A stretch of DNA of 64,000 nt, from positions 62,001-126,000 of IMG/VR virus record IMGVR_UViG_3300026097_000011; one strand, 5' to 3'. Below are positions 12,132-39,288 of the stretch, piece by piece. The notes under the pieces were generated by a model. It saw nothing but the letters and a program-made list of their open reading frames with translations, did no database searches and was not told the origin of the DNA. Source of the DNA: a virus. Made by a program: the position numbers and the translations under genes. How positions within the stretch are numbered: position 1 is the stretch's first letter; the number at the start of each line of letters is the position of its first letter.

Positions 12132-12469
12132 TTACTTATATTATAAAAATTATTAATCATTTTTTCTGTGATGAACATGGATTTATTTTTAGGTTCTATC
12201 CATCCAATTGCTATCATCTCTTTTATTTTAGACACTACATATGTTTTAAAGTCTTCGTCTTTTATACTGTCCCCAAATATATATTTTAAAGTTTTAGATG
12301 TGAACTTCATATTATTAAGCTCAAGAATCTTATTATCACTAGATTCTATTTGATCAATCACATATTTAATTAACTCGAACCCAATGGAGTCCCTTTCAAT
12401 AAAGGACTCCATTAAGTGCATGTTAAGGTGATATTTAATAGATATGTCTTCTTTAATCGTTAGAGTCAT
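12128..12469 (-). CDS. Hypothetical protein between uvsX and gp41
   Basis: 113 residues from the preferred start MTLTIKEDIS, which follows GAAAAAGAAGCC. An in-frame ATG at 12490 would add seven residues but lie deeper inside uvsX. Either way it overlaps the uvsX end and its TGA overlaps the gp41 start. The sequence is lysine-rich and helical, with MKFTSKTLKYIFGD and IGWIEPKNKSMFITE reminiscent of a winged helix. Position suggests a helicase or recombinase accessory factor, but similarity to gp59 is not visible. Confidence 0.7.
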   Translation of the reverse strand: MTLTIKEDISIKYHLNMHLMESFIERDSIGFELIKYVIDQIESSDNKILELNNMKFTSKTLKYIFGDSIKDEDFKTYVVSKIKEMIAIGWIEPKNKSMFITEKMINNFYNISK

Positions 12470-13694
12470 CGGCTTCTTTTTCAAGTTCATCTAAATCATT
12501 CTCAATTTGTAATTCTAATTGCTCTACTGCTTCAATATCTGCTAGTGAGCTATATTTGAATTTAGGCTGAATTACATTTTTGTCTAATTCATCAATCACT
12601 TGATCTGTAAATACACGTGAAGTGAATATTTCTCTCCATGGAACTACATCTCCATTACACCTAAGGATAAAGTTACGAGCTGCCCCTTTAGGTCTAAAGT
12701 AGAACTTCTCTCCATCTACTTCAAACTCAGAACAAGCTTCAGCTTCAGCACTGCTTAATTTTTTGAATTCTTTTTCTGTTAATTTATTTCCTCGTTCAAC
12801 TCCACAGTTTTCCCAAGATAAGTAATCCTGCAATCCTACATACGGATTCATACCCTTGTGGAATGAAATATGAATTTCTATTTTTTCAGGTTTAGCTAAA
12901 CGATTCTTATCAGTTTCGCTTCTAACTTTTACTCCTGTTTTTTCCTTTCCAGTTTCTTTTGATGTATTATCATCATCTGCTCTTAACACTCCCTTTGAAA
13001 GCATCATTACAACTGATGCGGAATATAGAGGACCCGATCCTCCGCTCATTGCCTTAGGAGAATATTGATCCATACTTGAGTATGTGTGAGATGTGAAAAT
13101 TAATGGAATTTTTAAGTTAGACAGCTTTAAAGTAAATGACTTAAACAATTGCCTAAGTTCCTTTGCTCTAAGACCCATGTCTTGTGCGTTACTTCCTTTT
13201 GCTCTATCTTCAACTTCTTTATTTGTTTCAAGATGTGTAAGTGAATCGACGATTAGCATAATCTTAATATCTGGATTCTCTTCTTTCATCTTGATAATAT
13301 CGTGGATATAAAACTTAACCTCTGATATTACCCCAATTCTAGTATAGCTCAATAGATCCATATTGATACCAAAATTAGAAAAATCTTTTTTATCTAGGGC
13401 TCCCTCTGTATCTATATAGAAAACAGCATATCCCATCTCCTGTGCGTTTTTAATTGCATTTAGACAAAGGAACGTTTTACCGGTTCCAGAATCTCCACCT
13501 ATCCCTAAGCTTCTTGCATTTGGATATCCTCCTCTAAGTGATCCTGACATTTGAGCATTTAACAAATAATTCCCAGTTGGAATGAATTCTGTAATGTCTG
13601 AGAATCCCATAAGGTCAACTCTTTTCTTGGTGGTCTTTTCTAGCTTGCTATTAAAGCTACTAAATGCCGAGATTAAATCTTTAGTATTTGACAT
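12453..13694 (-). CDS. uvsX: RecA-like recombinase UvsX
   Basis: 413 residues. Walker A GGDSGTGKT (about 67-75), Walker B KIMLIVDSLTHLE (Asp150), a FTSHTYSS segment and SGGSGPLYSASVVM are typical of phage UvsX recombinases. The C-terminus is acidic (LEKEADDSND). It catalyses strand invasion for recombination-dependent replication and repair with gp32, gp46/47 and gp41. A weak GTAGTAAAATATT promoter-like stretch lies just upstream (about 13717-13729). Confidence 0.93.
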   Translation of the reverse strand: MSNTKDLISAFSSFNSKLEKTTKKRVDLMGFSDITEFIPTGNYLLNAQMSGSLRGGYPNARSLGIGGDSGTGKTFLCLNAIKNAQEMGYAVFYIDTEGALDKKDFSNFGINMDLLSYTRIGVISEVKFYIHDIIKMKEENPDIKIMLIVDSLTHLETNKEVEDRAKGSNAQDMGLRAKELRQLFKSFTLKLSNLKIPLIFTSHTYSSMDQYSPKAMSGGSGPLYSASVVMMLSKGVLRADDDNTSKETGKEKTGVKVRSETDKNRLAKPEKIEIHISFHKGMNPYVGLQDYLSWENCGVERGNKLTEKEFKKLSSAEAEACSEFEVDGEKFYFRPKGAARNFILRCNGDVVPWREIFTSRVFTDQVIDELDKNVIQPKFKYSSLADIEAVEQLELQIENDLDELEKEADDSND

Positions 13695-29087: not shown

Positions 29088-32000
29088 TTACAAATAAGAT
29101 CTAAAAAAGCCTACTTGATCTGCTCCTGTTTTAATAAATTCATCTAAGAACACTAAAAGTAATATATTCTTTGCAGTTAATCTTTCCCATGGAGGAACAT
29201 CATCTGCACTTAAAATTGGATGAATTTGTTTAATTGAACCAAGTGCTCCTGCTACTCCAGCGCTCGCTACTAATAATCCTGCGACTGGATTATTCACAAC
29301 TGGAGAAAGTGCAGTTTTTAATATACTAGATGCAGTTCGTACCGCCTGTTCACTTATAACAAATTGAGACTTAGATTTAGGTATTGAGAATTTTAATTGT
29401 CCCTTTGCTATAAATAATGCTTCGGCAACTTTACCATATGGTGGAAAATTAAATACAGTACTCTCCAAAACATTTAAATCTAATCCTTTTCCTGTTTTAA
29501 TATGTGGAGCATTTATAATTGCATAATATGGTTTTAGTGCATCTTCTAATTTGTCAGTCATTGAGTCTATGAATTTTTTCATAAACGCCTTTATATCATT
29601 TGGATTAGAGTATATAAAATCTGTATCTAAAGGTTGAGAATTTTTAGATAATAGATTATTATTTAAATACTCTCTAATAGCAGATTTAATGATAGGTTTA
29701 ACAATTGATAGATTAATAGATGTCTGTTTGCTAAGTTGTTGTTTTGCTAAAATTTGAGGAAAGCTAGCCTGTTGCATTGATAATGATCCAAGTATTCCAC
29801 TAAACATATCAGTCCCAGCTTGTAAATTTAATTCGGGTTTAGGAATAGATAGCGACGTTGGTATTGCAGTTTTTATAATATTTAATAGTCCAAGTCGCAT
29901 ATCTCTAGCTGAAATATTAGTCTTTCCTCCAAATAGTGATTTTAACTCAGCTTCTGACATATTATCTATTACGTCTTTAACTAATCCTACCCCCTGTGAT
30001 ATTGCTGCATCTACTAGCGGTGGAAATGGAAATCCAATTGAAAATGGAGGCTTAGGGCAGCATTTAGCAAATGGATCTATTGATATACTCACACCTGCTA
30101 GTGATGATATTATGGCTGGAGTAAGTGATAGGGTTTGTTTAACTCTATCTGATTCCATTGCCTTTGATAATTCTCCTTGAGTTTTATCAAGTTTTTCTTT
30201 TGCTTTAGCCTGTTCATCGTTACTTTTAGATTTTGATGCTTCTACTTCATCATTTGCTTTTCTAAGTTTATTAGTAGCAGATCCAGAATCAACAGGTAGA
30301 GATCCTTTTCCCTTTGCTTTATTTGCAACTTTATCTATTGCATCCTTCATTAACTCTCTTATTTTATCTATATCTTCATTAATATTTGTATTTATAGATT
30401 CTATTGCAGATTCAATATCTTGTTTATATTTTGCAATCGCAACACTAAACATGTTTTTAATAGTCACAGCTTGATTTGATATAAATTCCCTGTCATTACT
30501 ACTTGCCATTTCATCAGCTTTATTCTGAGCCTCATCTGTTACCTCTGGATTAGGATTAAGTTTATCAGGCTCCTTTGGAAGTATAATTTTAGAAAATATT
30601 ATTTTATCAAAGTAATCAAGTAAATCTTCAATATATGCATTTATCTTATCATCAATATTTAATCCATCAGATTTAAGCTTTTCATTTATTTCTTTAACTT
30701 TAGAAGTTTCACCATTTTCCATGGCTTTTAATTTTGCAGCTTTGAGTTCTTCTCTTCTTTTAAATGATTGTTCTTTTAGTTTATTAATTCTATTAATTAC
30801 TGGCTTTCCGAGATCATCCATTGTTTTGAATATTTTTTTCTTAATATTCTCAACCATTTCTTCTACTTTTTCTCCTTTATCTGCTACTTCTTCCATTTTA
30901 GTAGATTCAGGCTTTGCTTTATCAATTGCTTGTTTTTTGATATTTGCTATTTCTTTTTCTGCTTTATATATCCTAACTGAATCTCCGGAGGCTTTTGCTT
31001 CTTTTAATTTTTGTTCTAATATTTGGATTCTTTCTTTTTCATTTTCATTTAATAGTTCATCTGGTTCGAGAGTTGGAACCTTAGTGATATCTAATTTAGA
31101 CTGAGTTGATAGTGGAATTTTAATAATTGGTTTTATTAGCTCATCTTCAGAATCAGATCCAAATTTCTCAGAAGATCCCCTAACTGTAATCAAATGTTGT
31201 TTATATCCAGAAGCTGACATAAAAAATACGACTGGTGATATAAATATCCCATTTACATTTAAGAACGTTACTAAAACTCCAAGCGGGGTAGATATTGCAA
31301 CTAATGGAACCCATACTTGAGGTAAAGGTATTTTAATTAATTTAGCTGGAGTGGGTATTATTAATCCAACTGGCCAATATCTAAATGTATTGGCATTTTC
31401 AGGGATTGGAAATAATCCTTGGACAGTTGCTAGTTTTGCAAATTCCTTCCAATAACATAGTTGACTAAAATTAGGAAGTGATGTATCAATTCCATTTATA
31501 CTTTCAAAAAACGGATCGCTTCCTAAAACTGATTTTACGTCTTCACATGGATTCTCTTCGTCTGGTATATTACCAAAACATTTTTCATTCTTTTCCTTTA
31601 GTGATGTTTTTATTTTTTCTGCGGTTGGAACATCTTCTAATATTTCTTCTATTCTACGAATTTCATTTTCTAAATCAGCTATTCTTTGGGTGAATATTAT
31701 ATTGGAATTATTAACTGCTTCGATTACAGTTTGTGATCCATCATACATTCCGGTTCCAACTGTTTTAGTACTGCCATCTGGATTAGTAACCTGAGCAGTT
31801 CCAGATTGATTAAACAAATTAATTCTTCCAATTGACAATAGTATTTCTACATCCTGTCTCGCAACTAATTCAAGCTGCGATTTAATCGATGGTAGTTCAG
31901 ATTCAATTATTTGTTCTCTAATTTGCTTGCGTCTGGTTTTGTAAGTTTCATCAAATTCCTGATAAAAATTTTGAAGTTTATCTAAATTACTAATAAAATA

Positions 32001-33239
32001 TTCAGTTCCGTTTTCTTTTTTAGTTTGTAAATCCTGTCCTTCTAATTTTGGATCAAGGTGTATAATATCGGATGTTAGTCCTCGCTCTTCTAGTGTAAAA
32101 AAGTTATTAACCGGATCTTCAAATAAATTATAATATCGAGTATATAAACTTCCTCGTGAATCAAAGTCTTCATTTGCAGGAGTATTTCGTATTGTATAGC
32201 CAGGTCCATCATTAAAAAATGAATTTTTAAGTAGAAAAGGATTATTTTTAATCATAAAATCCTCTTTGTATATTGATTTTTCTCCCGTATTTATATCAAA
32301 ATTTTCTTTATCAAGTGAAATAGAAAATAGTTCTTGATATTTAATATCGAATCCGACTAAGGGATTTGATATAACATCTGTAAAGTTTCCGACTGGAGTC
32401 TTTACATCTAGTGATATATATTCAGAATATCTACTGAGACCATTATTAATTGAGTTTATCGTGCTGTTTGATATAGTGTTTTTAATCTCTCGTACCAATT
32501 CAAGACGCCTAGCTGAGCTTGCATTATCTGCAATATTTGCATATCCATTAATTATACCATTTGTCATAGTTGGATATTTAGCTTCAGCTCCTCTTCTTAA
32601 ATTTTCTTGTTTATTAAATTTAATTTCATTCGCATTTATTATTCCCCAAAGTCTTACTATTTCGGCTTCAGCATCTTCTATTATATCTGAATTAGGAACA
32701 GCTAAACTTTGCTGGTAATTTATTCTAAGTTGTTGATTTGGTATAAGGCTATTTCTATGATAGTCAATGCTATCTCTAAGTCGTTTTTGTTCAGCTAGAA
32801 TAGGAGCAAATTCACCAATAATTATTGCCATTCTATTTGAGCGTTCTTCGTAATAGTATTTTAATGGAACTAGTGTATCTTGTAACTCATATAGACGATT
32901 TACTAAAATATTATATTTAGAATGTTTATCTAATTTTTCCTTTACTTCGGCATTAACTTCTTCTACAGATTCGAGGCAATCTTCTCCATTAAAAATTTCT
33001 TTTTTATTATCTTTAATTATGATTGGAGATTGATCTATATTATCCGCAGGAGCACCTTGGTCGCTACATGATATATCTTCTAAGCTAGTTGCAATTGGTG
33101 CAACAGATGATTCACCTTCACATTTTGAAACTTCAAGTAACTGTTCTAGTTGTTTTTGTGTAAATTTATTATTAACTTCATCTACTGATAATCCAGTGAT
33201 TATTGCTATTTCATTTATTAATAGGTCTAATGATGCCAC
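29088..33239 (-). CDS. Large coiled-coil protein, probable virion structural protein
   Basis: 1383 residues starting at GTG. Extensive Lys/Glu-rich coiled coil covers about 690-1000, and hydrophobic segments occur near 610-660 (VWVPLVAISTPLGVLVTFLNV) and near the C-terminus (VAGLLVASAGVAGALGS). Length, coiled coil and hydrophobic patches suit a tape measure or baseplate hub protein, but no family motif proves it. A late-type ATAAATAA box 16 bases upstream also suggests a virion role. It is isolated on the minus strand among metabolic genes. Confidence 0.7.
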   Translation of the reverse strand: MASLDLLINEIAIITGLSVDEVNNKFTQKQLEQLLEVSKCEGESSVAPIATSLEDISCSDQGAPADNIDQSPIIIKDNKKEIFNGEDCLESVEEVNAEVKEKLDKHSKYNILVNRLYELQDTLVPLKYYYEERSNRMAIIIGEFAPILAEQKRLRDSIDYHRNSLIPNQQLRINYQQSLAVPNSDIIEDAEAEIVRLWGIINANEIKFNKQENLRRGAEAKYPTMTNGIINGYANIADNASSARRLELVREIKNTISNSTINSINNGLSRYSEYISLDVKTPVGNFTDVISNPLVGFDIKYQELFSISLDKENFDINTGEKSIYKEDFMIKNNPFLLKNSFFNDGPGYTIRNTPANEDFDSRGSLYTRYYNLFEDPVNNFFTLEERGLTSDIIHLDPKLEGQDLQTKKENGTEYFISNLDKLQNFYQEFDETYKTRRKQIREQIIESELPSIKSQLELVARQDVEILLSIGRINLFNQSGTAQVTNPDGSTKTVGTGMYDGSQTVIEAVNNSNIIFTQRIADLENEIRRIEEILEDVPTAEKIKTSLKEKNEKCFGNIPDEENPCEDVKSVLGSDPFFESINGIDTSLPNFSQLCYWKEFAKLATVQGLFPIPENANTFRYWPVGLIIPTPAKLIKIPLPQVWVPLVAISTPLGVLVTFLNVNGIFISPVVFFMSASGYKQHLITVRGSSEKFGSDSEDELIKPIIKIPLSTQSKLDITKVPTLEPDELLNENEKERIQILEQKLKEAKASGDSVRIYKAEKEIANIKKQAIDKAKPESTKMEEVADKGEKVEEMVENIKKKIFKTMDDLGKPVINRINKLKEQSFKRREELKAAKLKAMENGETSKVKEINEKLKSDGLNIDDKINAYIEDLLDYFDKIIFSKIILPKEPDKLNPNPEVTDEAQNKADEMASSNDREFISNQAVTIKNMFSVAIAKYKQDIESAIESINTNINEDIDKIRELMKDAIDKVANKAKGKGSLPVDSGSATNKLRKANDEVEASKSKSNDEQAKAKEKLDKTQGELSKAMESDRVKQTLSLTPAIISSLAGVSISIDPFAKCCPKPPFSIGFPFPPLVDAAISQGVGLVKDVIDNMSEAELKSLFGGKTNISARDMRLGLLNIIKTAIPTSLSIPKPELNLQAGTDMFSGILGSLSMQQASFPQILAKQQLSKQTSINLSIVKPIIKSAIREYLNNNLLSKNSQPLDTDFIYSNPNDIKAFMKKFIDSMTDKLEDALKPYYAIINAPHIKTGKGLDLNVLESTVFNFPPYGKVAEALFIAKGQLKFSIPKSKSQFVISEQAVRTASSILKTALSPVVNNPVAGLLVASAGVAGALGSIKQIHPILSADDVPPWERLTAKNILLLVFLDEFIKTGADQVGFFRSYL

Positions 33240-33313: not shown

Positions 33314-34927
<1,614 letters not shown>

Positions 34928-36530: not shown

Positions 36531-37124
36531 TTAGCCTAGAGTATTACCTATAATCACTTCACCTATTGTTCCATTTACATCACACGACACAGTTGAGCTA
36601 TCTGTGATTCCATTTTCTCCAGTAAGCTGAAACACAGCACTGTATGTTATTGTTGTATTTGCAAAATGATCTGATATTTGTTTTCTACATTCTATATCTA
36701 TTGATCCTCCACCTGCTTCCAATTCAATAACAGATAAAGAAATAGGAGAATTATCCCATGTCGTATCTCCTAATCTTCTGTATTGCCATTCAGATATTGA
36801 TCCATTCGCTACTGAATCGACCTGTACTTCCAATGGTAAATTAAATATTCCAGAATAATTGACGGTTAATATACCAGTTGAGGTGACAGTATATGATTCT
36901 GAATCATAATCATAAGATCCTAAATCAAGAGTATTAGGAGAAAGAATAGCGCTTGGTATAAATTCTTCGTCATATGGGACAAACTCAACTCCAACTGGAG
37001 TAAAGTTATCCTTTTCAGTTCCTATAAATGATCTATACAGCCATCCACCGGGAACACGCTTAACAGTATTATATCTGTCAATTTCTAATTCTTCATGAAG
37101 GCCCATTGTATATATTGTAGCCAT
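36531..37124 (-). CDS. Hypothetical protein with Ig-like beta region
   Basis: 197 residues. The N-terminus (MATIYTMGLHEELEIDRYNTVKRVPGGWLYRSF) looks like a short conserved phage domain. The rest (about 60-197) is Ser/Thr/Gly-rich beta sequence typical of Ig-like or decoration domains. It overlaps the stop of the intein-carrying C-terminal dehydrogenase fragment by one base. No function known. Confidence 0.65.
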   Translation of the reverse strand: MATIYTMGLHEELEIDRYNTVKRVPGGWLYRSFIGTEKDNFTPVGVEFVPYDEEFIPSAILSPNTLDLGSYDYDSESYTVTSTGILTVNYSGIFNLPLEVQVDSVANGSISEWQYRRLGDTTWDNSPISLSVIELEAGGGSIDIECRKQISDHFANTTITYSAVFQLTGENGITDSSTVSCDVNGTIGEVIIGNTLG

Positions 37125-37444
37125 TATCCTTTATTATTTTCTTCTACTACTTCATTTGTAGGTTCAGGTCGAGTTGAAACTGCTCTTCCTTCCATTTTTT
37201 CCCAGTCTTTATTTTGACGTACAATCATATTTGTAACTTGGGCTCCAGTAATAGTAGGAAGACCTAATCCTAGTTTTTGAGAAACGTGTAAGATAGCACT
37301 TAAATCCTTTGGAAAACAATTATGTGTAATTATATCAGATTTTCCTTCAACCCAAAACAAATCATCATCTACTCTATTTGAATTTAATTCAAGATTATAT
37401 ACGTCTCCTTTAAATTCAGTTCTTTCTATTTTAGTTATTTTCAT
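37124..37444 (-). CDS. C-intein plus C-terminal extein of UDP-glucose dehydrogenase
   Basis: 106 residues. Residues 1-42 are a C-intein: block F GDVYNLELNSN...DDLFWVEG, then block G SDIITHN ending in His-Asn. Splicing would join to Cys43, the first residue of CFPKDLSAIL, which is the catalytic-cysteine motif (GGxCxPKD) of UDP-glucose dehydrogenases. The extein part has only 64 residues, so the UDP-binding C-terminal domain of normal enzymes is missing. Its partner is the fragment at 38188-39288, with an endonuclease gene in between. Confidence 0.87.
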   Translation of the reverse strand: MKITKIERTEFKGDVYNLELNSNRVDDDLFWVEGKSDIITHNCFPKDLSAILHVSQKLGLGLPTITGAQVTNMIVRQNKDWEKMEGRAVSTRPEPTNEVVEENNKG

Positions 37445-37448
37445 ATTA

Positions 37449-38210
37449 TTATACTTTATTTTCTATTAATTTTTCAAGTTCGTCTTTAAATATTAGACGA
37501 ACATTATTACCTTGGTTTTTAAGCGCCTCAAATTTATCAATCTGGAATGTATAGTGAAATTTATTTTTTATATCAACATATTGATTCCATTCATGAACGA
37601 AAAAATCAGGATAATATGATTTATTTTCACCATTTAGCTCATATGATATTCTTCCCTTATGGCAGTCAAATGTTAAATCCTTTGAATCTAGCCATTTTAT
37701 AAATGCAAGTTCCCATGTTCCTTGTACTTTATATGTAGTTCCATTTGAATGTAAATATTCGTACCATTTAGATTGACCAACTTTGACTCCGTTATATTTA
37801 CCATCTGCCCATGCTTTAGCTGTATATTTTGAAATATTATCTCTAAATTCCTGAGTCATTAAAGTCTTTCTAGTTTTAGATGCTTTAATTCTTGAATCTA
37901 ATCTTTTCATACCATTAGATTCACCAATATTGATCTTTCCTTTTTTTGAATTGGAATTTCTAATTTTCCAGTCTGGATCGTTTTTAATCATCATATTAAT
38001 AGCATTTGACATTCTATCTCTAGCTCTTTTAGTTTTTTGCCGCATTTTTTGCCAACATTCTTTACAATAATCTTTATCGAAATCTGGATTATTTTTTAAT
38101 AATGTTTGATGAGATTTCATATTACGATCGTCTATTTTATTACAATTGTCGCATTTAAATATTATTCTGGTTTTAGTATTTAATTTATTATCTGAGTATT
38201 GAATTAGCAT
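37449..38210 (-). CDS. Free-standing homing endonuclease (zinc finger + PD-(D/E)xK/Vsr-like)
   Basis: 253 residues. CDNC (20-23) and CKEC (49-52) form an N-terminal zinc finger, followed by basic helices (about 60-140) that look like DNA-binding modules. The C-terminal GTWELAFIKWL (Glu167), YYPDFFV (Asp202) and VDIKNKF (Asp213, Lys215) fit a PD-(D/E)xK/Vsr-like nuclease core, a type linked to split-intein loci. It lies between the two intein halves, overlaps the first by 23 bases and ends 4 bases before the second. It would spread the insertion. Confidence 0.8.
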   Translation of the reverse strand: MLIQYSDNKLNTKTRIIFKCDNCNKIDDRNMKSHQTLLKNNPDFDKDYCKECWQKMRQKTKRARDRMSNAINMMIKNDPDWKIRNSNSKKGKINIGESNGMKRLDSRIKASKTRKTLMTQEFRDNISKYTAKAWADGKYNGVKVGQSKWYEYLHSNGTTYKVQGTWELAFIKWLDSKDLTFDCHKGRISYELNGENKSYYPDFFVHEWNQYVDIKNKFHYTFQIDKFEALKNQGNNVRLIFKDELEKLIENKV

Positions 38211-39288
38211 TAGAGGTCAGTGTTTTCTTATTATTTATTTCTGACCAATTATAAAATTCATCAGTTTCAACTATGTCCTTAGCCATAGATAGAACAAGTG
38301 TTCCATTTCTTAAAACTGGGAAAATATGTTCAGGGGTACATTCTATATTAGATCCATCATGCATTGTGAATGAATATAAACATCCTTCAAATTGATTTTT
38401 AGTTACTTTTTTTACAATCTTAGTTTCCTCAGATTCTATATTGTTATCAAATGAAATAACTTCTATAAGTTCACCATTTTCATATTTATTGTATAAATCA
38501 AATAGGGACTTATTTCCGTCTGGAGTAGCTACTTCATAATGTCCAGGAAAACAATGTCCTCCAAATCCTCTGTCTCCATCTGGACCCGGTACGTTATAGT
38601 GGGAATTTCCAATTCTAGGATCATGCATCGTTGCTTCTATTACATCGTCATATTTGATATCTAACTTTTCACAAAGAGAGTAAATATCATTAAAGAAGCT
38701 GACTTTAGTTGCTAGAAAAAGGTTAGTTGTGTACTTTGTCATTTCTGCTTCTTTTGAATTGACAATGATTATTTCTGCACCTGGGAGTCCCTTTTGAAAT
38801 ATTTCCCTAACTGGATCCACATATTCCATGTAGTCTATTCCAAGAACTACTCTTGTTTGATTTTTGAAATCTTCAATAGCATTTGCCTCAGTTAAAAATT
38901 CAGGACTAAATGTAACACCTACTCTATTTGATAAGCCATTTAACATCTCTGTTGTTCCAGGTGGAACTGTTGATTTTACAATGGTGATTACGTTTTTATC
39001 TTGAATTTCTGCTTCTTTTGCTATGTCTTCGATAACTGATTCTACGATTCTAGTATCACATTCTCCATCTTCAAACATTGGAGTTGGAACACATACAAAT
39101 ATAACTTCGCAGTTTTCAACTAACATCTTTATATCTATGCTATTTTTATCAACAAATCCATTCGTTATAATTGATTTAGTTGAATCCTTGTCGTACGCAA
39201 AAACAGTAAATGTTTTACTAAGCTCAGTCATTACTGCGGATCCTACGAATCCCTGTCCAATTATTCCTATATTTGCTAATTCTTTCAT
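38188..39288 (-). CDS. N-terminal extein of UDP-glucose dehydrogenase plus N-intein
   Basis: 366 residues. Residues 1-245 are a dehydrogenase: GIIGQGFVGSAV (NAD-binding), FVCVPTPMF, STVPPGTTEML, SPEFLTEANAIEDF and GFGGH. At Cys246 an N-intein begins: block A CFPGHYEVATPDG, then block B IECTPEHIFP (T-x-x-H), ending at residue 366. Spliced to Cys43 of the C-terminal piece, the product would have 309 residues. The dehydrogenase makes UDP-glucuronate, usually for surface polysaccharide; its role in the phage is unknown. Confidence 0.88.
   Translation of the reverse strand: MKELANIGIIGQGFVGSAVMTELSKTFTVFAYDKDSTKSIITNGFVDKNSIDIKMLVENCEVIFVCVPTPMFEDGECDTRIVESVIEDIAKEAEIQDKNVITIVKSTVPPGTTEMLNGLSNRVGVTFSPEFLTEANAIEDFKNQTRVVLGIDYMEYVDPVREIFQKGLPGAEIIIVNSKEAEMTKYTTNLFLATKVSFFNDIYSLCEKLDIKYDDVIEATMHDPRIGNSHYNVPGPDGDRGFGGHCFPGHYEVATPDGNKSLFDLYNKYENGELIEVISFDNNIESEETKIVKKVTKNQFEGCLYSFTMHDGSNIECTPEHIFPVLRNGTLVLSMAKDIVETDEFYNWSEINNKKTLTSNANSILR

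What the first reader, a model, noticed from the sequence alone, without database searches (positions are those of the whole stretch)
37124..39288. UDP-glucose dehydrogenase gene fractured by a split intein with a homing endonuclease gene between the halves
Seen: three minus-strand genes in order are a dehydrogenase N-part ending in a 121-residue N-intein, an endonuclease gene, and a 42-residue C-intein fused to the dehydrogenase C-part. The junction falls exactly at the catalytic Cys (GGH | CFPKD). The Cys start, T-x-x-H block and terminal His-Asn are all present. Known: such fractured genes have been described for phage-type gp41, NrdJ and IMPDH with a free-standing Vsr-like endonuclease family. 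A UDP-glucose dehydrogenase host gene would, to my knowledge, be uncommon. Inferred: trans-splicing yields a 309-residue enzyme.
Basis: partly seen in the sequence, partly recalled or inferred. Interest (0 to 1): 0.9.

Follow-up and report, generated by a model that had tools for sequence, protein, structure and literature searches.

The report
Phage dehydrogenase gene split by intein
In an environmental phage the gene for a sugar-nucleotide dehydrogenase is cut in two exactly at its catalytic cysteine by a split intein, with a DNA-cutting enzyme gene lying between the halves, and two dozen related phage loci plus uncut relatives show that this element is real and moves between phages.

Summary
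On the minus strand a dehydrogenase N-part (245 aa) plus N-intein (121 aa), an endonuclease gene (253 aa), and a C-intein (42 aa) plus dehydrogenase C-part (64 aa) follow in three different frames. The junction is GGH|CFPKD. IMG/VR gave 24 distinct loci (window included) with the same split; close syntenic relatives are uninterrupted at exactly that codon. Phage L011 has a backbone 89-96% identical to the window's but carries the element of L002 (91-96% identical), so the element moves.

Two framing points need correcting. The endonuclease is not Vsr/EDxHD-like: it is a PD-(D/E)XK enzyme related to T7 endonuclease I with an N-terminal zinc knuckle. And the site is not rare: continuous inteins occupy it in many cellular UDP-glucose dehydrogenases. 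What is unusual is the split form with this endonuclease. The same endonuclease family also sits free-standing beside intact, often target-altered dehydrogenases; other loci have decayed, absent or LAGLIDADG endonucleases at the same site. Trans-splicing and DNA cleavage are inferred, not shown. The enzyme lacks the usual UDP-binding domain, so its activity is uncertain. Verdict: new variant of the known 'fractured gene' arrangement.

The parts
38554..39288 (-). N-extein: residues 1-245 of the nucleotide-sugar (UDP-glucose-type) dehydrogenase, ending RGFGGH
   Evidence: PF03721 E 2.6e-25, PF00984 E 4e-19; contiguous with the C-extein in empty-site relatives L005, L006, L007
38188..38553 (-). 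N-intein, 121 aa plus stop; Cys1 and TPEH block; its last about 18 residues occur only in the window's clade and overlap the start of the endonuclease gene
   Evidence: TIGR01445 E 8.1e-11 over cut-off; profile A6 hits solved inteins, 2jmz E 8.8e-12 and NrdJ-1 E 2.1e-5; alignment
37449..38210 (-). Endonuclease gene, 253 aa, between the intein halves, in a frame of its own
   Evidence: 27 further full-length relatives aligned (A4); T7 endonuclease I E 4.7e-7; PF05367 Phage_endo_I in 15 of 28; dN/dS 0.15-0.21 in window pairs
37983..38210 (-). N-terminal zinc-knuckle module of the endonuclease, residues 1-76 (C20, C23, C49, C52 invariant)
   Evidence: alignments; separate tree
37449..37787 (-). 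PD-(D/E)XK nuclease domain, residues 142-253, with E167, D202, D213, K215
   Evidence: alignment A5; model mean pLDDT 90.8
37319..37444 (-). C-intein, 42 aa, VYNLEL ... ITHN
   Evidence: conserved in 9 loci; TIGR01443 13.6 bits, below cut-off
37124..37318 (-). C-extein, 64 aa, starting at the catalytic Cys (CFPKD); last part of the central domain; no UDP-binding domain follows
   Evidence: contiguous with the N-extein in L005 at 84% identity on both sides

Best explanation
This is a fractured phage gene. A nucleotide-sugar dehydrogenase has been split at its catalytic Cys by a split intein, and a homing-type endonuclease gene lies between the halves. The three pieces are translated separately from one strand. 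The N-intein and C-intein associate, Cys1 of the intein and the +1 Cys of the C-extein carry out trans-splicing, and the 309-residue dehydrogenase is restored with its catalytic Cys as the first residue after the junction. The endonuclease, a PD-(D/E)XK nuclease of the T7 endonuclease I type carrying a zinc-knuckle DNA-binding module, most likely cuts uninterrupted alleles at or near this codon, so that repair copies the whole element into them. The intein protects the carrier's own allele by interrupting the target and repairs the protein. Shown by sequence: the anatomy, the exact insertion point, conservation, purifying selection, empty sites and transfer between backbones. Inferred: trans-splicing, DNA cleavage and homing.
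For: Anatomy and intein motifs. Three different frames in the window, with different frame relations in other loci (e.g. N and C in one frame in L002, not in L003 or L004; coordinates), so no conserved frameshift joins the pieces. Empty orthologous sites with conserved downstream neighbours in L005, L006, L007. 21 distinct loci with split intein plus endonuclease, 2 with a decayed endonuclease and 1 with none. Purifying selection: endonuclease dN/dS 0.08-0.21 in the pairs that are not saturated. Mobility: L011 has the window's backbone (0.89-0.96 nt identity downstream of the dehydrogenase) but L002's element (0.91-0.96, against 0.73-0.74 to the window's), with the switch at the C-intein/C-extein junction; L018 and L059 share an element at 79-86% nt identity in hosts of 53-57%; host and element trees disagree about L002 (AU p = 0.014 for the host test, 0.07 for the element test). 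Endonuclease family. No group I intron in the region.
Against: No splicing or cleavage data. The C-intein is below the curated cut-off of its HMM. Structure comparison of the nuclease with the PDB gave only non-significant matches, the best of them PD-(D/E)XK enzymes. The N-intein of the window's clade evolves fast (dN/dS 0.58 against L002). The incongruence of the element tree alone is marginal (AU p = 0.07). Transfer could be ordinary phage recombination rather than endonuclease-driven homing.
Confidence: 0.87

Rival explanations
1. The element is a degenerate leftover: the dehydrogenase is broken, the halves no longer splice, and the endonuclease persists on its own.
For: The N-intein of the window's clade diverges quickly (dN/dS 0.58 in one pair); decayed endonucleases exist at L016 and L102.
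Against: Both extein pieces stay under strong purifying selection (UN dN/dS 0.05-0.19 where measurable, UC 0.05-0.28); Cys1, TxxH, HN and +1 Cys are kept in all 22 loci in which both halves were read; in L016, L102 and L109 the endonuclease is lost but both intein halves remain intact.
Confidence: 0.05
2. The nuclease is a general phage resolvase or repair enzyme (a T7 endonuclease I homologue) that landed here by chance, and the split intein is static.
For: Family similarity is to a Holliday-junction resolvase.
Against: Every close family member found lies inside or directly beside a nucleotide-sugar dehydrogenase. It carries added zinc modules that are exchanged between lineages, it is optional between near relatives, and it moves together with the intein halves.
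Confidence: 0.06
3. The three reading frames are really one continuous intein, separated by sequencing error or joined by programmed frameshifts.
For: The N-part and the endonuclease gene overlap by 23 bases; at the same site LAGLIDADG inteins are continuous (L020, L022).
Against: The same breaks recur in many independent contigs with differing frame relations; stop codons are followed closely by start codons; L109 has both halves separated by only 30 bases with stops between.
Confidence: 0.02

Closest known systems
Fractured genes with split inteins in phage and environmental DNA (Dassa et al. 2009, NAR 37:2560; gp41-1, gp41-8, NrdJ-1, IMPDH-1)
   Same: Conserved enzyme gene broken by a split intein with a free-standing endonuclease gene between the halves; phage setting; split at the usual endonuclease position of the intein. 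The paper is not held here; its content is from memory and from papers that cite it.
   Different: Host is a nucleotide-sugar dehydrogenase (from memory, the published hosts are DNA synthesis and repair enzymes). The endonuclease is PD-(D/E)XK of T7 endonuclease I type, not the Vsr-like EDxHD family described with those genes.
Continuous UDP-glucose dehydrogenase inteins of archaea and bacteria ('udp' allele, PMC4071816; loci L122-L201)
   Same: Host family and exact insertion point before the catalytic Cys, HN|CFPKD.
   Different: Those are single-frame inteins, many with LAGLIDADG-like motifs, in full-length enzymes; here the intein is split and the endonuclease is separate and of another family.
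Free-standing phage homing endonucleases and intronless or collaborative homing (SegF, SegG, F-CphI; PMC6083498)
   Same: Relatives of this endonuclease sit as separate genes beside an intact target gene, often with an altered target motif (CFVKD, CFCKD, CFIKD).
   Different: In the window the self-protecting sequence would be a split intein; the enzyme family differs from SegF/SegG and from F-CphI (Endo VII type).
I-Ssp6803I (PD-(D/E)XK homing endonuclease of a bacterial intron)
   Same: PD-(D/E)XK catalytic class used for homing.
   Different: Compact intron-encoded enzyme (per PMC3943268); this one is multi-domain with a zinc knuckle and is nearest to T7 endonuclease I. No direct sequence comparison was made.

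Membership tests
Split intein (naturally trans-splicing) | Nucleophile at intein position 1 and TxxH block | tested here: met
   C1 and T73, H76 invariant in 14 N-inteins; TIGR01445 over cut-off
Split intein (naturally trans-splicing) | C-terminal His-Asn followed by Cys/Ser/Thr | tested here: met
   HN|C in all 22 loci with both halves read; TIGR01443 weak in the window, 6 of 9 members match it
Split intein (naturally trans-splicing) | Halves encoded by separate reading frames | tested here: met
Split intein (naturally trans-splicing) | Trans-splicing activity | not testable with these tools
   Needs co-expression and mass spectrometry
Fractured-gene arrangement (Dassa et al. 2009) | Conserved enzyme gene interrupted by split intein halves with an endonuclease gene between them | tested here: met
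   empty alleles
EDxHD (Vsr-like) homing endonucleases | Vsr-type EDxHD active site / similarity to I-Bth0305I | tested here: not met
   Family keeps E..D..(D/E)xK with K215 invariant; PDB profile search hits T7 endonuclease I, and I-Bth0305I is not among matches up to E = 10
PD-(D/E)XK nucleases, T7 endonuclease I type | E..PD..(D/E)xK residues and profile similarity | tested here: met
   1m0d E 4.7e-7, PF05367 in 15 of 28, residues invariant
PD-(D/E)XK nucleases, T7 endonuclease I type | Fold match to a solved member | tested here: inconclusive
   Good model (pLDDT 90.8), but the best Foldseek matches are PvuRts1I and Bax1 at E 0.03-0.04
Homing endonuclease | Optional element with empty sites, moving between lineages | tested here: met
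Homing endonuclease | Sequence-specific cleavage of the uninterrupted allele | not testable with these tools
   Needs purified enzyme
UDP-glucose dehydrogenase | NAD-binding and central domains with catalytic Cys | tested here: met
   PF03721 and PF00984; CFPKD
UDP-glucose dehydrogenase | C-terminal UDP-binding domain PF03720 | tested here: not met
   Absent from the 138.6-kb record; empty-site relative L005 also has only the first two domains
LAGLIDADG 'udp' inteins | Continuous intein with LAGLIDADG domain | tested here: not met
   Window intein is split and its endonuclease is PD-(D/E)XK; L020 and L022 do meet it

The most novel reading that the evidence does not exclude
One endonuclease lineage colonises a single catalytic-site codon of phage nucleotide-sugar dehydrogenases in two ways: free-standing beside a target-altered gene, or between the halves of a split intein. 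Zinc modules are swapped between these forms, and the loci found (empty, free-standing, split with endonuclease, split with decayed endonuclease, split without endonuclease, continuous LAGLIDADG) are steps of one assembly and decay cycle, which would show how endonucleases and split inteins join and part.
Probability: 0.5. Interest if true: 0.72.

Novelty: new variant of a known kind. Interest (0 to 1): 0.6.

Why it matters
Fractured genes have been put forward as a link between mobile and split inteins (from memory of Dassa et al. 2009). This family offers, at one codon, empty alleles, free-standing endonucleases, composite elements, decayed and bare split inteins, and continuous LAGLIDADG inteins, so the order of assembly and loss can be tested. 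It adds an endonuclease class to fractured genes and puts the +1 Cys on the enzyme's own catalytic Cys, so without splicing the active site is not assembled. About two dozen new natural split inteins are also candidates for protein engineering.

Tried and rejected
Annotated phages (INPHARED): no DNA match to the locus, no match to the C-part, dehydrogenase and endonuclease only as distant separate genes. Group I intron: none. Continuous intein by frameshift: rejected on frames and recurrence. EDxHD/Vsr endonuclease: rejected on residues and profile search. Whole-protein and domain fold searches of the endonuclease against PDB: not significant. Endonuclease family in cellular genomes: none found. 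First thought that L102 and L058 carry endonucleases of different lineages: dropped, since the L102 remnant groups with L058. The free-standing endonucleases form one group in the full-length tree, but this rests on the N-terminal module; the nuclease-domain tree needs three changes of label, so no direction of evolution is claimed. Sigma-70-like sites in the region were fewer than in shuffles, so no promoter is proposed. Literature: no held paper describes a split intein in a nucleotide-sugar dehydrogenase; this does not exclude one in papers not held.

Full report
What is there. On the minus strand of the window (position 62001-126000 of a 138,587-base IMG/VR virus record) three ORFs follow one another. 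The first, 39288-38188, is 366 aa: residues 1-245 are a nucleotide-sugar dehydrogenase (PF03721 E = 2.6e-25, PF00984 E = 4e-19) and residues 246-366 are an N-intein (TIGR01445 E = 8.1e-11, over its cut-off). The second, 38210-37449, is a 253-aa endonuclease whose start overlaps the end of the first by 23 bases in another frame. The third, 37444-37124, is a 42-aa C-intein ending in THN followed by 64 aa starting CFPKD, the catalytic-Cys motif of the family. The extein parts sum to 309 aa. Every number in the finding is correct.

Is it real and not chance? Scans of IMG/VR with the three proteins and with alignments of them returned many loci. After removal of near-copies there are, window included, 21 distinct loci with split intein and endonuclease, two in which the endonuclease is decayed (L016, L102) and one without endonuclease (L109, identical in four contigs). 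The frame relation between N-part, endonuclease and C-part differs between loci (coordinates), so no conserved frameshift joins the pieces. The intein starts with Cys and ends with His-Asn, followed by Cys, in all 22 loci in which both halves were read. The endonuclease is under purifying selection (dN/dS 0.08-0.21 in unsaturated pairs).

Empty sites. L005, L006 and L007 carry the same dehydrogenase uninterrupted, with GGH and CFPKD adjacent, and have the same downstream exonuclease; L005 and L007 also have the next gene. L005 is 84% identical to the window protein on both sides of the junction. This fixes the insertion point to the codon of the catalytic Cys.

Mobility. L011 is the clearest case: downstream of the dehydrogenase its backbone is 0.89-0.96 identical in DNA to the window, against 0.63-0.84 to L002, but its N-intein, endonuclease and C-intein are 0.96, 0.93 and 0.91 identical to those of L002 and only 0.73-0.74 to the window's. 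The switch falls at the junction of C-intein and C-extein. L018 and L059 share elements of 79-86% DNA identity in dehydrogenase genes of 53-57%. Host and element trees disagree about L002; the host alignment rejects the element's grouping (AU p = 0.014), while the element alignment rejects the host's only marginally (p = 0.07). Transfer is therefore shown; that the endonuclease drives it is inferred.

The endonuclease. In 28 relatives the invariant residues include four zinc-knuckle Cys and E167, D202 and K215, with D213 changed to E in one. Profile searches hit T7 endonuclease I (E = 1.6e-4 with 8 sequences, 4.7e-7 with 28) and Pfam Phage_endo_I in 15 of 28 members. The nuclease domain is modelled well (pLDDT 90.8), but fold searches were not significant; their better matches are mostly PD-(D/E)XK enzymes. 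It is thus a PD-(D/E)XK enzyme of T7 endonuclease I type, not a Vsr-like EDxHD enzyme, the family named with the published fractured genes (PMC12350094 cites Dassa et al. 2009 for EDxHD/Vsr).

Other states of the same site. (a) In L032, L044, L047, L048, L057 and L061/L062 the dehydrogenase is intact and an endonuclease of this family lies directly downstream. In all of these but L032 the target motif is CFVKD, CFCKD or CFIKD instead of CFPKD, as expected if the gene beside a free-standing endonuclease is resistant; empty-site L009 also has CFVKD, so the association is not strict. In L032 the endonuclease C-terminus is fused to a stray dehydrogenase 3' end, and in L050 the endonuclease lies between two dehydrogenase 3' fragments. 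(b) L020 and L022 have a continuous LAGLIDADG intein at the same residue. (c) A scan of cellular genomes with the C-part alignment found 98 related loci; of the 80 kept, 77 read through as continuous inteins, typically of 450-485 or 178-205 residues. Two of the other three were read and are frame-broken continuous inteins. The site is thus a common intein site; the split form with this endonuclease was seen only in viral contigs. (d) In L038, L042, L045, L046, L049, L056 and L109 the host is a related longer dehydrogenase with CHPRDN after the junction, split at the homologous Cys.

Modular endonuclease. Free-standing members, and L058, have a different N-terminal zinc module from the other split-intein members, whereas the nuclease domain of L032 groups with the window's clade (99/98) and that of L058 does not group with the free-standing ones. 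DNA-binding modules appear to be exchanged between nuclease lineages. No root and no direction are claimed.

How it most likely works. The two extein-intein fragments are made separately, associate through the intein halves and splice in trans; the +1 nucleophile is the dehydrogenase's own catalytic Cys, so the active site exists only after splicing. The endonuclease probably cuts uninterrupted alleles near this codon and the break is repaired from the interrupted allele. Splicing and cleavage are inferred from the motifs, conservation and empty sites, not shown.

The enzyme. Both the window protein and the uninterrupted relative L005 lack the C-terminal UDP-binding domain PF03720 of cellular UDP-glucose dehydrogenases. 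The name is therefore a family assignment, not a function.

Standing. The arrangement itself is known. New here, as far as the held literature and collections show, are the host gene for the split form, the endonuclease class, and the set of intermediate states at one codon. The founding paper is not held, so its host list could not be checked.

Noticed in passing
L032:1-1477; L044:3018-4669; L048:2935-4525; L062:2898-4582; also L047, L057, L061: Intact dehydrogenase with a free-standing endonuclease of the same family directly downstream; in all but L032 the target motif CFPKD is changed to CFVKD, CFCKD or CFIKD, possibly a resistant allele.
   Followed up: partly
L032:668-1477 and L050:3500-4930: Endonuclease fused at its C-terminus to a stray dehydrogenase 3' end (L032), or lying between two dehydrogenase 3' fragments (L050): traces of an insertion that duplicated the end of the target gene.
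   Followed up: partly
L109:2816-4549 (L110-L112 identical): Split intein without any endonuclease: the halves are separated by 30 bases, in a longer dehydrogenase with CHPRDN after the junction.
   Followed up: yes
L016:5683-5982; L102:3797-3991: Decayed endonucleases (deletions, stops) between intact split-intein halves.
   Followed up: yes
L020:4336-6249; L022:4267-6186: Continuous LAGLIDADG inteins in viral dehydrogenases at the same catalytic Cys.
   Followed up: yes
L122-L201: Continuous inteins at HN|CFPKD in nucleotide-sugar dehydrogenases of many archaea and bacteria; 178-205 or about 450-485 residues in most.
   Followed up: partly
L182 and L197: Frame-broken continuous LAGLIDADG-type inteins in dehydrogenase genes of cellular metagenome-assembled genomes; decay or assembly error.
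   Followed up: no
window 38188-38245: The last about 18 residues of the N-intein (SEINNKKTLTSNANSILR) occur only in the window's clade and overlap the start of the endonuclease gene.
   Followed up: no
window 37124-39288: The phage dehydrogenase lacks the C-terminal UDP-binding domain, as does its uninterrupted relative; substrate and activity are open.
   Followed up: partly
window 12453-13694: UvsX-like recombinase ORF of 413 aa that matches its PHROG only over residues 2-235.
   Followed up: no
window 33314-34915: GroEL-like chaperonin ORF (533 aa) in the phage genome, recognised by eye from its translation and not searched.
   Followed up: no
window 29088-33239: Large ORF (1383 aa) without any PHROG match.
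   Followed up: no
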